Source of the DNA: a virus
IMG/VR virus record: IMGVR_UViG_3300030331_000156
Location: 1 to 24,398 of that record
DNA length: 24,398 nt
Reading direction: 5' to 3' (one strand)
A model generated the notes under the pieces. It worked only from the letters and a program-made list of their open reading frames with translations, did not search any database and was not told the origin of the DNA. Shown here one piece after another: positions 906 through 7,185 of this stretch. Position numbers and translations under genes: made by a program. Every line of letters begins with the position of its first letter. Within the stretch, counting starts at the first letter, position 1.

Positions 906-1100
906 ATTAATATTAAAAACGAGTGGAAGAACATATTACTTAATGTTGTAAGTATTATTTGTATAATGTCTTTTCACTATATTAACAATAACAATGTAAA
1001 TTTTATGTCTATTGATTTGTCGATTAGTTGCGGCACTAGACGTAAAAGAACTAATGAGTCAGAATTTGTTTACGAAGATACAGAATGTCTTAATGAATGA
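906..1100 (+). CDS. Possible tiny protein with a non-standard start (or ATG at 966)
   Basis: After a TAA at 885-887 this frame is open to the TGA at 1098-1100. GGAGGA at 891-896 is placed for a start near 903-908, and the in-frame codon there is ATT (906), a rare but real start codon. The first ATG in frame is at 966 and gives 44 residues without a Shine-Dalgarno. From ATT it is 64 residues: a basic start, a hydrophobic stretch ('ILLNVVSIICIMSFHYI'), then a polar tail with two cysteines ('SISCGTRRKRTNESEFVY'). The tail looks more protein-like than random AT-rich DNA. I do not recognise a family. It fills most of the otherwise gene-free stretch 796-1161. Whether it is expressed is uncertain. 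Confidence 0.35.
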   Translation: MNIKNEWKNILLNVVSIICIMSFHYINNNNVNFMSIDLSISCGTRRKRTNESEFVYEDTECLNE

Positions 1101-1106
1101 ATATAA

Positions 1107-1134
1107 TTGACCTATGTGAATAATTGAGTATAAT
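1107..1134 (+). promoter_or_regulatory. Sigma70-type promoter for the early operon
   Basis: TTGACC (1107-1112), a 16-base spacer, then a perfect TATAAT (1129-1134). Transcription would start near 1141, about 20 bases before the ATG at 1162. It is the best promoter I can find by eye in the window and lies directly upstream of eight or nine tightly packed + strand genes with no other gap larger than 20 bases, so it probably drives the whole early operon using host RNA polymerase. Confidence 0.7.
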
Positions 1135-1161
1135 GGGGAAAACAAACAAAATGGAAAAAAA

Positions 1162-1644
1162 ATGGAAAAAACACAAACTCAGGTACAAGAAGAATTATCA
1201 ATACTTTTAATGTCATATACTGATATGGATAGCTCTTATGATATAGGTAAGTCTATAGAGAAAATATGCACTAATAATAAATTGTTTCATGTGAAACAGT
1301 CTTTTGAAAATTTAATATTAGATAATGATTTTAATAAATATAATGAATTATACGAAAAAAAATGGTTTAAAATTTATAGAGGACAATTATCTCATATTAA
1401 AACTTTAGGTTATTCTTGGACTATTAATAAAAAAGTTGCAAAGTTTTTTGCTAATAGACAATACAATCCTTTAATTTTAGAAGTGCAAGGTTACGATAAG
1501 GAAACAATTAAAAATATTAAACCAATAATATTAGAATCAAAAATTAAATTTGATGATTTGTTTTTATATATAAATGACAGAAATGAAGATGAAATATTTG
1601 TACCTTTTCCAAAACAATTAAAAACAAAAATAATAGAAATTTAA
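1162..1644 (+). CDS. Putative mono-ADP-ribosyltransferase-like early protein
   Basis: 160 residues. What is visible is the layout of R-S-E class ADP-ribosyltransferases. There is an Arg in a 'KIYRGQ' strand (R73), then 'GYSWTINKKVAKFFANR' (residues 83-99), which supplies the Ser-x-Thr strand and the following helix with conserved aromatics. Near the end comes 'RNEDEIFVP' (140-148), giving an E-x-E pair (E142, E144) like the catalytic ARTT loop. T4 phage enzymes of this class (Alt, ModA, ModB) modify host RNA polymerase and ribosome-associated proteins early in infection. That comparison comes from knowledge of the family, not a search. Residues 1-65 are helical and may hold a substrate-binding region. 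It is the first gene behind the strong promoter, with a very short leader and no obvious Shine-Dalgarno; an ATG at 1151 is in another frame and stops quickly. Activity and target are unproven. Confidence 0.6.
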   Translation: MEKTQTQVQEELSILLMSYTDMDSSYDIGKSIEKICTNNKLFHVKQSFENLILDNDFNKYNELYEKKWFKIYRGQLSHIKTLGYSWTINKKVAKFFANRQYNPLILEVQGYDKETIKNIKPIILESKIKFDDLFLYINDRNEDEIFVPFPKQLKTKIIEI

Positions 1645-1645
1645 A

Positions 1646-2563
1646 ATGGAACTTAAAAACAAATTAGAAAAATATAATATAAAACATTTTTCTGCCTCGC
1701 AGCTAAACATACCATTAAATTTATGGTGGTTTAAATATGTTAAACTTACAGCCGAAGAAAGAAAAAAAATAGAGTTTGGTGTCGCTGCCACATCTGGAAA
1801 TGCAATACATGACGCATTAGATCTATCTTTGCAAAATGTAAATCCTAATACATTTGAATATGACCAAGAAACAATAGATTTAATTTTTGATGAAATAGGT
1901 AATCGTATAGACGAGCATATACCTGTAGATGAAAATGATGAGCTTAAAATACAAGGTTGTAAGGAACACTCACCGAAAACAGCACAAAATATGCTAGACG
2001 CTACTATTGATGTATTAAAAGAAAGACGTGGAGATGATTATAAAGAAACAAAACATAAAACATTTTTAGAAGGCAATTTTGAACAACAAATTTTATGGCA
2101 ACCAAAAGAATTGGTTGTACCTATTATTGGATATGCCGATATGTTAGTTAATTACCCAAAAACAATAATAGAGTACAAAACACTTCAACCAAGACTGGGT
2201 GCTGTAAAAAAAGATGGGAGTAGAGGCTTTTCCGTTGCCTCTATTCCTGTCTTACCACGCATAACATATTTAGAACAAATTACTATATATTGGGAAGCTA
2301 TGAACAGAGAATATTATCCTATTATTATTGTTGGTAACAAAAACAAAGCTCAAGTTTTTCACCCTGAAAATTGTCAAGAAATGTCATTTGATAATATGGA
2401 GATATATTCTAGATCAATGATAAAAAAAGCAAAAATTAGACAATCATTACTAATGATAGACAATCCTATAAATGTTTTAGATATACCTGATTTTGAAACT
2501 GATTTTTACTGGAATATAGGTAAAGAACTAGAGGATAAGGCAAAAGAATTATGGCTAAAGTAG
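1646..2563 (+). CDS. RecB/Cas4-like PD-(D/E)XK nuclease
   Basis: 305 residues, starting one base after the previous stop. The motif order is that of RecB-type exonucleases (PDDEXK_1 superfamily): an N-terminal 'FSASQLN' and then 'SGNAIHDAL' with H55, 'IGYADMLVNYPKTIIEYKT' with D165 and the E176-x-K178 pair, and 'YLEQITIYWEA' with the Q211-x-x-x-Y215 signature. These residues bind two metal ions and cut DNA. No four-cysteine Fe-S cluster pattern is evident, unlike true Cas4. In phage replication modules such a nuclease resects DNA ends to make ssDNA for an annealing protein, and a DUF1071 annealing protein lies three genes downstream, which supports that role. The end overlaps the next gene by 13 bases. 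Confidence 0.85.
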   Translation: MELKNKLEKYNIKHFSASQLNIPLNLWWFKYVKLTAEERKKIEFGVAATSGNAIHDALDLSLQNVNPNTFEYDQETIDLIFDEIGNRIDEHIPVDENDELKIQGCKEHSPKTAQNMLDATIDVLKERRGDDYKETKHKTFLEGNFEQQILWQPKELVVPIIGYADMLVNYPKTIIEYKTLQPRLGAVKKDGSRGFSVASIPVLPRITYLEQITIYWEAMNREYYPIIIVGNKNKAQVFHPENCQEMSFDNMEIYSRSMIKKAKIRQSLLMIDNPINVLDIPDFETDFYWNIGKELEDKAKELWLK

Positions 2564-2939: not shown

Positions 2940-3120
2940 AAAATTTCACGTTGTTGTTCAACAATTATTAGATAAATATGGTGAATTTTCTTGGGAAAAA
3001 CATTGGCGTGAAAGAGAAAAAAGAATGGAAGAAGTTTGGGGCGGTAAATGGAAAGCTATTGGAAAAGATAACTACATGAAAACTATGACAAAAATAAAAG
3101 ATGGAGATAAAGATGAATAA
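2926..3120 (+). CDS. Small charged unknown protein, 64 residues
   Basis: ATG 2926 follows AGGA (2917-2920) at suitable spacing. An ATG at 2824 in the same frame would overlap the previous gene by 116 bases and is less likely. The protein is helical, charged and Trp-rich ('YGEFSWEKHWREREKRMEE', then 'VWGGKWKAIGKDNY'), with a Lys/Asp tail. I do not recognise the family. It overlaps the start of the annealing-protein gene by 8 bases, keeping the tightly coupled pattern of this operon. Confidence 0.6.
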   Translation: MDKNKKFHVVVQQLLDKYGEFSWEKHWREREKRMEEVWGGKWKAIGKDNYMKTMTKIKDGDKDE

Positions 3121-3736
3121 AAACACAGTGTTTGAAACACTAAGTACGATTAATATTAATAAAAAAGATATAGAAAAAAAAGGTCAGTTTAATTATATAT
3201 CATGGGCTACTGCTTGGCATGATGTAAGTAAAGTTTATCCAGATATTACTTATAATAAAAAATTAAGTGATATAGATGGTTTTGTATCAGTTTCTATTAC
3301 GATAGAAGGTAGAACTCTTACAGAGGAGTTTCCTATTTTAGATTACAAAAACAAACCTGTTGCACAACCTAATGCTTTTCAAATTAATACTGCTTTTCAA
3401 CGAGGTCTTGTTAAATGTTTGGGTATGTTTGGGTATGGATTGTTTATATATAAAGGTGAAGATTTGCCGCCTGACAATGTTTCACATGAAACAATAGAAA
3501 AAAAATCTAATTTAGAAATTCTTACAGATGAAAGTAATAAATTAACAGATGAAAATGACCATTTAGAAGAAATGGAAAAAGAAGGTTACAGATTTGCTAT
3601 TGATAATATAAAAACTTTAGATGAGTTAGAGGTTTGGGGAAAAAATAATGCAACAAAGATAAATAATTCAAATCATGCAGATTATGTAAGAAAAATTTAT
3701 GCAAGTAAAAGAACTGAATTAAATGAAAGAGTTTAA
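3113..3736 (+). CDS. DUF1071 single-strand annealing protein (Rad52/Sak-like recombinase)
   Basis: 207 residues. I chose ATG 3113 because GGAG (3103-3106) precedes it by six bases; ATG 3101 would place that site inside the coding sequence. The DUF1071 hallmarks are 'FNYISWATAWHDVSKVYPD' (residues 26-44), the strand pair around 'VSVSITIEGRTLTEEFPI', and 'AFQINTAFQRGLVKCLGMFG' (88-107) leading into 'YGLFIYKGEDLP' (108-119). DUF1071 belongs to the phage single-strand annealing proteins (Sak/ERF/Rad52-like group), which pair complementary ssDNA during recombination-dependent replication and repair. The C-terminal ~85 residues are charged, of low conservation, and may contact SSB. The nuclease upstream and SSB 18 bases downstream form a familiar resection-annealing set. 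Confidence 0.85.
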   Translation: MNKNTVFETLSTININKKDIEKKGQFNYISWATAWHDVSKVYPDITYNKKLSDIDGFVSVSITIEGRTLTEEFPILDYKNKPVAQPNAFQINTAFQRGLVKCLGMFGYGLFIYKGEDLPPDNVSHETIEKKSNLEILTDESNKLTDENDHLEEMEKEGYRFAIDNIKTLDELEVWGKNNATKINNSNHADYVRKIYASKRTELNERV

Positions 3737-3754: not shown

Positions 3755-4108
3755 ATGAACTCATATAACACTACTGGTAATCTTGCCAACGATCCAGAAT
3801 TAAAAAAAGTTGGAGAAACATCTGTATTAAATTTTACAGTTGCTTCTAATATTAATAAAGACACTGTTGTTTATAATGATTGTGCTTTATGGGGTAAGTT
3901 AGGTGAAAGTCTATCTAGTTTTTTAACTAAAGGTAAACCAGTTACTATATTTGGTGAATTATCTGGTATTAACGCTTATGTTAAAAAAGATGGTAATGCT
4001 AACGCTACTATAAAGGTAAAAGTTAATCAACTTAAAATGCACGGAACAAATGAAACGCAAGATGCTGCTTCGTCAAATGTTGAACCAAATGATGATATAC
4101 CTTTTTAA
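3755..4108 (+). CDS. ssb: Single-stranded DNA-binding protein (SSB)
   Basis: 117 residues, a short phage-type SSB. AAAGGAGAA just upstream of ATG 3755 is the strongest ribosome binding site in this operon, as expected for a protein needed in quantity. The OB fold is visible: 'GNLANDPELKKV' (first strand and turn), 'SVLNFTVASNI' (second), 'NDCALWGKLGESLSSFLTKG' (the typical W-G-K helix region), 'PVTIFGELSG' and 'ATIKVKVNQLKM'. It ends with the acidic tip 'NDDIPF', the conserved hook with which bacterial SSBs bind partner proteins, so it may recruit host or phage repair and replication proteins. Between OB fold and tip is only a short linker. Confidence 0.93.
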   Translation: MNSYNTTGNLANDPELKKVGETSVLNFTVASNINKDTVVYNDCALWGKLGESLSSFLTKGKPVTIFGELSGINAYVKKDGNANATIKVKVNQLKMHGTNETQDAASSNVEPNDDIPF

Positions 4109-4339
4109 ATGGAAGATGATTTAATTAATAATCCACCTCATTATCAAGGCGATAAGTTAGAGGCTTTAGACTCTATACGAGCCATGCTTGGAGCAAAAGT
4201 TTTTATTGCTTATTGTCTTGGTAATGTCAGTAAGTATGTTTGGAGATGCACTAAAAAAGGTAATTTTGAACAAGACTTACAGAAGGCTAAATTTTATATA
4301 GATAGAGCTATTGAAGAAAATGATAAAATTAAAAAATAA
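4109..4339 (+). CDS. DUF3310 protein
   Basis: 76 residues, ATG directly after the SSB stop. It opens with the hallmark 'NNPPHYQGDK' (residues 7-16) and contains 'FIAYCLGNVSKYVWRCTKKG' (32-51) and a C-terminal helix ('DLQKAKFYIDRAIEEN'). These are the three signatures of DUF3310, a family widespread in phages and found as part of T7 gp1.7, a nucleotide kinase. A link to nucleotide metabolism is suggested by that relative, but this single-domain form has no obvious ATP-binding loop, so its activity is unknown. It overlaps the next gene by 20 bases. Confidence 0.85.
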   Translation: MEDDLINNPPHYQGDKLEALDSIRAMLGAKVFIAYCLGNVSKYVWRCTKKGNFEQDLQKAKFYIDRAIEENDKIKK

Positions 4340-4613
4340 AGATTGTTTAGATAAAACGATTGAAAAGATATGTGATGATTTTAATGTGTCGTCTATTGAT
4401 TTAATTTCACGCAGAAGGGTAAAAGAACTATCTATAGCTAGATGGTTAATATTTAATTTATTAAAAACAAACTCAATATTAAGTTTAGTTGAGATTGGCA
4501 ATAAGTATGACAAAGATCATACAAGTGTTATTCATGGCATACGAGAAATACAAATAAGAGAACCAGAATTAATTAGTAAGTATCAATCTGTTTATGAGGA
4601 TTGTAAGGGGTAA
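4320..4613 (+). CDS. Free-standing DnaA domain IV-like DNA-binding protein
   Basis: 97 residues. I chose ATG 4320 over an in-frame TTG at 4311. The helix-turn-helix of the DnaA C-terminal domain (Bac_DnaA_C) is clear: 'RRRVKELSIARWLIFNLL' (residues 31-48), 'SILSLVEIGNKYDKDHTSVI' (52-71), then a helix ending 'HGIREI'. The D-H-T-S-V block (66-70) matches the DnaA signature that reads bases of the 9-bp DnaA box. The AAA+ ATPase and the helicase-loading domain are absent, so it can bind DNA but cannot itself melt an origin by the usual route. It may mark the phage origin, compete with host DnaA, or act as a repressor. It is the last gene of the early operon and its stop abuts the stop of the opposing gene. 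Confidence 0.85.
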   Translation: MIKLKNKDCLDKTIEKICDDFNVSSIDLISRRRVKELSIARWLIFNLLKTNSILSLVEIGNKYDKDHTSVIHGIREIQIREPELISKYQSVYEDCKG

Positions 4614-5177
4614 TTATTTCCAAGAGTCGCCTGACAGCCAAGACACAATAGAGTGTCGAGTGCCTAGTGTAAGAGGACATACTTTGTGCATTAGAAAACT
4701 GGGAAAACAGACTATATCGCCTTTATCTCTTGGTATAACAAAATCATCTTCATTATCAACATCAAGTCTTAAATCGCCACCTTGATAATCTTTTGTATCG
4801 CTTAATTGTATAATAGTTGTAATTTTTCTATTAGGTAACATAGTGTTAAGACTTTGCCAATTTATATCCATGTGATAGTCATATTTGCCGCTAATACCAT
4901 AAGTTAACATTTGTAAAGGTTCTGCAAAACCTTTTATGTCAAAACCCCAATATTTATTATTAACTGTACTAGCAAATTCACTAACAATACTAGCTACAAA
5001 TTCAAGTTCTTTGTCATCTGCGTCAAAAGCCTTTACGCTAACATTTCTGTAAGATTTATTGTCACCACCTGAAAGACCACCATCTTGTTCAGGTAACTTT
5101 TTTGTTAATTCAAAAATTTTATCTATTTCATCATCAGTCAAACACTGCTTTAAGTGACAAACCTGTGGTGTTGTCAT
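4614..5177 (-). CDS. 2OG-Fe(II) oxygenase
   Basis: 187 residues. The jelly-roll dioxygenase motifs are intact: 'YDYHMDINWQ' gives the H102-x-D104 iron ligands, 'PSFLMHKVCPLTLGTRHSIV' (159-178) supplies the distal iron ligand H164 and R174, which holds 2-oxoglutarate, and 'YQGGDLRLD' (131-139) is the strand typical of prolyl-hydroxylase/PKHD-type members. Such enzymes hydroxylate a protein side chain, nucleic acid base or small molecule using O2 and 2-oxoglutarate. They are common in marine phages, but substrates are mostly unknown. It is the last gene of the late operon, three bases after the lipoprotein stop in the direction of transcription, and it ends flush against the opposing early operon. 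Confidence 0.88.
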   Translation of the reverse strand: MTTPQVCHLKQCLTDDEIDKIFELTKKLPEQDGGLSGGDNKSYRNVSVKAFDADDKELEFVASIVSEFASTVNNKYWGFDIKGFAEPLQMLTYGISGKYDYHMDINWQSLNTMLPNRKITTIIQLSDTKDYQGGDLRLDVDNEDDFVIPRDKGDIVCFPSFLMHKVCPLTLGTRHSIVSWLSGDSWK

Positions 5178-6771: not shown

Positions 6772-7185
6772 CTATAAACAAGTACCAACTTTTCTTAAAG
6801 TATCAAAAACCTCTGCAAATGTCACTCTTTCGTTATCAAGTGTCATTTGTTCTTCATATATTTTTTTTGTAGATTTTAAGTTATCTGGTAACATAAAGTA
6901 AATTAAACGTTTATCTAATGCCACTAATGCTAATACATCACATTGTACTTTAGATATTGGTGTTTTTTGTCCACCAAAATTTGTTTGAAAATTATATCGT
7001 GCAACACTTTTGCCTTTGTCAAAATGAGGTCTTTGTGTTGCTTTTACTTGTATTCTTATTGGTTTTGTTTGCAGCCATGCAAGTAGATCGTAACCAACTT
7101 TAGAAACAATATCATTATTTATGCCATAGCCTTGCAAAACAGAACTTGCTAATAGTTCTCCTTGCAAACCCACCCTTGTTGACAT
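6772..7185 (-). CDS. PD-(D/E)XK endonuclease-like protein
   Basis: 137 residues. The N-terminal 'GLQGELLASSVLQGYG' carries the first acidic residue (E10), 'GYDLLAW' the metal-binding D33, and 'IRIQVKATQRP' the Q46-x-K48 pair. This E...D...QxK order is that of small PD-(D/E)XK nucleases of the group I intron/PF11645 and resolvase-like type. It could resolve branched DNA before packaging, trim DNA during head filling, or be a relic homing endonuclease. It sits in the late operon between a small membrane protein (overlapping by 3 bases) and the basic mini-proteins rather than with the replication genes. A weak ribosome binding site and overlap suggest coupled, moderate expression. Confidence 0.65.
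   Translation of the reverse strand: MSTRVGLQGELLASSVLQGYGINNDIVSKVGYDLLAWLQTKPIRIQVKATQRPHFDKGKSVARYNFQTNFGGQKTPISKVQCDVLALVALDKRLIYFMLPDNLKSTKKIYEEQMTLDNERVTFAEVFDTLRKVGTCL

What the first reader, a model, noticed from the sequence alone, without database searches (positions are those of the whole stretch)
1162..1644. ADP-ribosyltransferase-like gene as the first gene of the early operon
The protein shows R-S-E class hallmarks in the right order (R73 in YRG, S85-x-T87, E142-x-E144) and lies directly behind a near-consensus host-type promoter with a very short leader. T4 uses Alt/ModA/ModB in just this time window to reprogramme host machinery, so a host-takeover enzyme in a small AT-rich marine-type phage would be of interest. 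Its helical N-terminus (1-65) has no parallel that I recognise.
Basis: partly seen in the sequence, partly recalled or inferred. Interest (0 to 1): 0.75.

Follow-up and report, generated by a model that had tools for sequence, protein, structure and literature searches.

The report
Swappable early phage ADP-ribosyltransferase-like gene
A small phage carries, right behind its early promoter, a gene for a protein that looks like an ADP-ribosyltransferase of a family nobody has named, and sister phages gain or lose it like a plug-in part, as expected of a weapon against the host rather than a core gene.

Summary
Window 1162-1644 (+) is a 160-aa gene behind a conserved TTGACC-16-TATAAT promoter. 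It belongs to an unnamed family (phrog_4776, "unknown function"; no significant Pfam, NCBIfam or PADLOC match) found in phage contigs, mycobacteriophages, a roseophage, Bacillus-group plasmids and about 2% of Bacillota genomes sampled. In 27 relatives, mostly 19-31% identical, R73-G74, S85-W86-T87 and E142-x-E144 are invariant. AlphaFold2 (pLDDT 85.5) gives the ART core: six strands and a helix, with R73 on strand 1, S85 on strand 2 and E144 on strand 5. Weak Foldseek hits are to ART folds, and the profile aligns to T4 ModA/ModB above all shuffles. No activity is shown.

Two corrections. The helical N-terminus is not unique: it is the shortened end of a helical domain found across the family. 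And the gene is not a fixed operon part: 16 sister contigs have an empty site (promoter directly followed by the nuclease gene), while ART copies in diverged backbones are almost identical (dS 0.02-0.06 versus 0.47-1.15 for the next gene). This fits an exchangeable accessory gene (counter-defence or modulation of a host target) better than a core takeover enzyme. In Bacillota most sampled relatives are fused to an HD domain.

The parts
1107..1134 (+). sigma70-type promoter TTGACC-N16-TATAAT of the early operon
   Evidence: Pattern scan, 11/12 matches; both hexamers conserved in relatives with and without the ART gene
1141..1645 (+). segment present only in ART-carrying phages (insertion relative to empty-site sisters); 'AATGGAA' occurs at both ends (1150-1156 and 1645-1651)
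   Evidence: Empty-site comparison with 16 sister contigs
1162..1644 (+). ADP-ribosyltransferase-like protein, 160 aa, member of phrog_4776
   Evidence: ORF, phrog_4776 E=1.2e-12, AlphaFold2 model pLDDT 85.5, pTM 0.81
1174..1359 (+). N-terminal helices (residues 5-66), shortened form of the family's N-terminal all-helical domain
   Evidence: Helices in the model; alignment with the W-x-D-x-E-N segment of longer relatives; phrog_4776 match starts at profile position 116 of 237
1378..1383 (+). R73-G74 (predicted NAD+-binding arginine, strand 1)
   Evidence: Invariant in 27 of 27; on strand 68-76 of the model
1414..1422 (+). S85-W86-T87 (S-x-T motif, strand 2)
   Evidence: Invariant in 27 of 27; strand 85-87 of the model
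1585..1593 (+). E142-D143-E144 (E-x-E at the end of the presumed ARTT loop; E144 predicted catalytic, strand 5)
   Evidence: E142 and E144 invariant in 27 of 27; strand 144-146 of the model
1646..2563 (+). next gene of the operon: putative nuclease (phrog_1706, CRISPR/Cas-associated, E=5.9e-5), first gene of the operon in ART-less sisters
3101..3736 (+). Sak-type single-strand annealing protein (context)
   Evidence: Pfam SSAP_Sak E=7.8e-31
3755..4108 (+). single-stranded DNA-binding protein (context)
   Evidence: Pfam SSB E=5.4e-12

Best explanation
The gene encodes a small cytoplasmic mono-ADP-ribosyltransferase of the R-S-E class, made at the start of infection from the phage's first early promoter. 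It would bind NAD+ in the cleft of the ART core (R73 and S85 holding NAD+, E144 promoting release of nicotinamide) and, since E142-x-E144 is strictly E-x-E, most likely transfer ADP-ribose to an arginine or other guanidinium group of a bacterial macromolecule. Its sporadic, recently exchanged presence at one site suggests that the target matters only in some hosts, so the most likely role is counter-defence or modulation of a host- or strain-specific target. Shown here: family membership, conserved catalytic signature, predicted ART topology, empty sites, lateral exchange, conserved promoter. Inferred: NAD+ use, arginine specificity, timing, target and role.
For: Invariant R-G, S-W-T, E-x-E in 27 diverged family members. 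The predicted topology matches the published ART core, six strands and a helix with R on strand 1, S on strand 2, E on strand 5 (definition in PMC7827354). A full-length relative modelled at pLDDT 93.2 finds IcmQ (E=0.006), Tpt1 (prob 0.96), cholera toxin A1 and ParT in PDB; the window model finds IcmQ, CNFy and pertussis S1 in its list. hhalign to T4 ModA/ModB relatives scores 28.2 against a shuffle mean of 12.1 and maximum of 20.2 (0 of 100 reach it), with R, S and A-x-x-F-A in register; ten unrelated window proteins score at most 16.3. Exchange: dS 0.024-0.063 in the ART gene against 0.47-1.15 in the adjacent gene. Empty site in 16 sister contigs. At least 3 gains or losses on the tree.
Against: No activity is shown. 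Foldseek to PDB never reaches E<0.001, and the hhalign probability is low (13-23%) because only about 30 columns align. The aromatic residue usual at the third position of the ARTT loop is D139 here, though SdeA and SidE also lack it. No host or defence system is identified, so counter-defence rests on distribution alone. No recurrent neighbour points to a pathway.
Confidence: 0.62

Rival explanations
1. Core host-takeover enzyme as in T4 ModA/ModB: it ADP-ribosylates host RNA polymerase or translation proteins to redirect gene expression early in infection.
For: First gene behind a host-type promoter; nearest characterised ART profile is the T4 Mod family, whose genes are also early (own knowledge) and whose R73A/G74A ModB mutant loses activity (PMC10468400).
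Against: Absent from 16 of the 22 contigs in which the site is covered, including sisters whose nuclease protein is 97% identical; recently exchanged. A core takeover step would not be expected to be so dispensable. But T4-like ARTs are not strictly essential either, so this is not excluded.
Confidence: 0.2
2. NAD+-consuming or target-modifying toxin used for superinfection exclusion or abortive killing of competing phages in the infected cell.
For: ART folds serve as toxins in many systems (PMC9503650); the gene is accessory and exchanged.
Against: No recurrent antitoxin-like neighbour in 37 relative loci; PADLOC gives no hit to the window protein; toxicity is not testable here.
Confidence: 0.1
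3. ART-fold protein that has lost catalysis and only binds a nucleotide or a partner (as IcmQ and the CNFy domain resemble the fold).
For: Best PDB matches include IcmQ and CNFy, which I recall as non-transferase users of the fold.
Against: Catalytic R, S-x-T and E-x-E are invariant over 27 diverged members, which a non-enzyme would not be expected to keep.
Confidence: 0.08

Closest known systems
phrog_4776 (PHROGs, unknown function; relatives include Mycobacterium phage LeBron gp117)
   Same: The window protein and all 27 aligned members match it; the C-terminal half aligns end to end with invariant R, S-W-T, E-x-E
   Different: The window protein lacks about the first 115 profile positions, most of the N-terminal helical domain; the family has no assigned function
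T4 ModA/ModB (phage arginine-specific R-S-E ARTs)
   Same: YRG/WRG, S-x-[ST], A-x-x-F-A, E-x-E in the same order; profile alignment above 100 shuffles; small early phage proteins
   Different: No significant single-sequence similarity found; only about 30 columns align with confidence; window protein is shorter, has S-W-T and an extra invariant R99, and is an exchangeable accessory gene
AcrIF11 (phage and plasmid ART anti-CRISPR)
   Same: Small phage/plasmid ART-like protein carried by mobile elements (PMC12421852)
   Different: In AcrIF11 the acidic residues noted are D115 or D146/E147, not an R-S-ExE set; the family profile does not pick it up in PDB; no Cas target is known for the window protein
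Tpt1/KptA and RES/ParT ARTs
   Same: Appear among the best fold matches of the full-length relative (Tpt1 prob 0.96, ParT prob 0.30)
   Different: Different active-site signatures (they lack the R-S-E or H-Y-E motifs, PMC7827354); hhalign to KptA and RES is at background (13.1 and 11.4)

Membership tests
[quoted passage not shown]
   AlphaFold2 model: strands 68-76, 85-87, 121-129, 135-137, 144-146, 156-159, helix 90-100; definition in PMC7827354. Predicted, not solved.
R-S-E class ADP-ribosyltransferase | R on strand 1, S on strand 2, E on strand 5, conserved in homologues | tested here: met
   R73, S85, E144 on those strands, invariant in 27 of 27
R-S-E class ADP-ribosyltransferase | E/Q-x-E at the end of the ARTT loop | tested here: met
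   E142-x-E144 invariant
R-S-E class ADP-ribosyltransferase | Aromatic residue at position 3 of the ARTT loop (usual, not universal) | tested here: not met
   Position 3 of residues 137-144 is D139; SdeA and SidE lack it too
R-S-E class ADP-ribosyltransferase | Structural match to solved ARTs | tested here: inconclusive
   ART folds are enriched among the top hits but no E<0.001
R-S-E class ADP-ribosyltransferase | R, S and E clustered in one pocket (distances) | not testable with these tools
R-S-E class ADP-ribosyltransferase | NAD+-dependent transferase activity | not testable with these tools
   Needs the purified protein
T4 Mod family | Sequence-profile homology to ModA/ModB | tested here: inconclusive
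   hhalign score 28.2 against shuffle maximum 20.2, but probability only 13-23% and about 30 columns
T4 Mod family | ADP-ribosylation of RNA polymerase or translation proteins | not testable with these tools
   Needs assay
phrog_4776 | Profile match | tested here: met
   E=1.2e-12, residues 19-158 to profile 116-234 of 237
Toxin-antitoxin module | Conserved partner gene next to the ART gene | tested here: not met
   No recurrent partner cluster among the neighbours of 37 relative loci beyond mostly close phage kin

The most novel reading that the evidence does not exclude
phrog_4776 is an unrecognised family of R-S-E ADP-ribosyltransferases used by phages as an interchangeable early counter-defence enzyme, dropped into the first position of the early operon. 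In Bacillota the same enzyme is fused to an HD hydrolase, which would form a transferase plus hydrolase in one chain that acts on ADP-ribose adducts or nucleotide signals.
Probability: 0.3. Interest if true: 0.72.

Novelty: new variant of a known kind. Interest (0 to 1): 0.56.

Why it matters
Phage ARTs known in detail (T4 Alt, ModA, ModB, AcrIF11) come from few phages. This one defines an unnamed, widely spread family with a clear catalytic signature. Near-identical phages with and without the gene exist as natural pairs, so its benefit and target can be tested directly. If it counters a defence, it adds an enzymatic anti-defence family reaching from small, probably marine phages to mycobacteriophages and Bacillota.

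Tried and rejected
Pfam, NCBIfam and PADLOC scans of the window protein and relatives gave no significant ART family, so membership rests on motifs, fold and profile alignment. A PDB sequence hit to a TrpR-like protein over residues 3-67 (3g1c, E=0.003) was dropped, because the family profile does not find it and the segment aligns with the family's own helical domain. The idea that the ART gene carries its own promoter was dropped: ART-less sisters have the same promoter in front of the nuclease. An upstream ATG at 1151 opens only a 19-codon frame and is not the start. hhalign to KptA and RES families is at background, though only two or three sequences stood for each; the high hhalign score to the HD domain is an artefact, since the family alignment contained those fusion proteins. 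An antitoxin partner was looked for and not found. Two alignment scans failed because the alignment was too diverse, and two genome searches failed on a handle error.

Full report
What is there. The gene at 1162-1644 (+) encodes 160 aa. It is the first gene of a rightward early-type operon: putative nuclease (1646-2563), Sak annealing protein, SSB, DUF3310 and a DnaA C-terminal domain protein. The record is a virus contig of 24,398 bases. Its capsid protein is closest to Phage C72C1 (53% identity) and more distantly to Pelagibacter and Methylophilales phages. C72C1 has the same run of Sak, SSB and DUF3310-type genes; the ART protein search found no relative in it.

Family. hmmscan puts the protein in phrog_4776, unknown function (E=1.2e-12), with no significant match in Pfam, NCBIfam or PADLOC. 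tblastn finds relatives in cluster-L and other mycobacteriophages, a Ruegeria phage, a Lysinibacillus phage and Bacillus-group plasmids, the weakest of them recognised by the shared motifs rather than by E-value. Scans found 38 viral and 4 genomic loci, and the family profile hits 9 of 398 Bacillota genomes. All 27 aligned members match phrog_4776.

Catalytic signature. R73, G74, S85, W86, T87, A93, F96, R99, E142 and E144 are invariant in 27 sequences; apart from one 94% relative they are 19-31% identical to the window protein. The published ART core has six strands and a helix, with R on the first, S on the second and E on the fifth strand, and a loop ending in E/Q-x-E (PMC7827354). The AlphaFold2 model (pLDDT 85.5, pTM 0.81) has strands 68-76, 85-87, 121-129, 135-137, 144-146 and 156-159 and helix 90-100, so R73, S85 and E144 fall on strands 1, 2 and 5. 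The aromatic residue often found in the loop is missing (D139).

Structure and profile comparisons. A longer relative (L054, 242 aa) is modelled at pLDDT 93.2. Its PDB matches start with IcmQ (E=0.006) and Tpt1 (prob 0.96) and include cholera toxin A1 and ParT. The window model gives IcmQ first and CNFy third by E-value, and lists pertussis toxin S1. No match is below E=0.001, but ART folds are clearly enriched. (That IcmQ and CNFy contain ART-like domains is my own knowledge.) The viral library gives four matches below 0.001, all without function, plus a head-morphogenesis-domain protein and a Bodo saltans virus WWE protein; ART fusions to MuF head proteins and many ARTs in Bodo saltans virus are described in PMC9503650. 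Profile alignment to T4 ModA, ModB and relatives scores 28.2 against a shuffle mean of 12.1 and maximum of 20.2 in 100 trials, with R, S and A-x-x-F-A in register. Ten unrelated window proteins score at most 16.3 with the same ART-domain profile; KptA and RES are at background.

N-terminus. Longer relatives carry an all-helical domain with conserved H-E-R-P-Y-R and W-x-D-x-E-N segments. The window protein keeps only its end: its residues 10-25 or so (EELSILLMSYTDMDSS) align with the yWsLLsdiWTDtENqW segment, and the phrog_4776 match starts at position 116 of 237. The frame upstream of the ATG is closed after a few codons in relatives, so this is a short form, not a wrong start.

An exchangeable gene. 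Of 22 contigs in which the sequence upstream of the nuclease gene is covered (the window included), six carry the ART gene and 16 do not. Two of the six (window and L090) are near-identical, and two (L003 and L107) have identical nuclease genes, so there are about four distinct carriers. In empty-site phages TATAATggggaaa is followed by a GGA-rich ribosome site and the nuclease ATG; in carriers the ART gene lies exactly between. The simplest reading is that the promoter predates the ART gene. ART copies are almost identical in diverged backbones: window against L100, ART dS 0.036, nuclease dS 1.15; against L002, 0.024 and 0.47; against L003, 0.063 and 1.13. The high-identity block begins at the promoter and ends just after the ART stop codon. 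The nuclease tree needs at least three gains or losses on well-supported branches.

How it most likely works. Made at once after infection from a host-type promoter, the protein would use NAD+ to modify a bacterial macromolecule, probably on arginine since the loop is strictly E-x-E, as in ModA and ModB (PMC10468400). The target is unknown. Presence in only some sisters and fast exchange fit an arms-race function, so I put counter-defence or modulation of a strain-specific host target above constitutive takeover. These last steps are inference.

A related finding. Most Bacillota relatives outside phages carry a C-terminal HD domain after the ART domain: 11 of the 15 loci examined, two of them on plasmids. 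This recurrent fusion has no explanation here.

Noticed in passing
L014:1925-3445, L018:2075-3490, L076, L113-L120: Recurrent fusion of the same ART domain to a C-terminal HD domain in Bacillota genomes and plasmids (11 of 15 loci examined); one Bacillus genome (G001) has three family members.
   Followed up: partly
window 1101-1669: High-identity block (379 bp without a mismatch against L001) within flanks that are 70-90% identical, marking recent recombination of the ART gene between phage backbones.
   Followed up: yes
window 1091-1106: About 110 bp upstream of the promoter present in L001-L004 and many ART-less sisters is missing in the window and its nearest kin.
   Followed up: no
window 4311-4613: Stand-alone DnaA C-terminal (DNA-binding) domain protein in the early operon, overlapping the end of the DUF3310 gene.
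   Followed up: no
window 4614-5177 (-): 2OG-Fe(II) oxygenase gene at the switch between the early operon and the leftward structural genes.
   Followed up: no
window 6772-7185 (-): Weak match to a PD-(D/E)XK endonuclease family (PDDEXK_5, E=2.9e-4, below cut-off) among the leftward genes.
   Followed up: no
L042:2549-5560: The family's ART domain sits inside a 1003-aa protein, suggesting a polyvalent or virion-delivered version in another phage.
   Followed up: no
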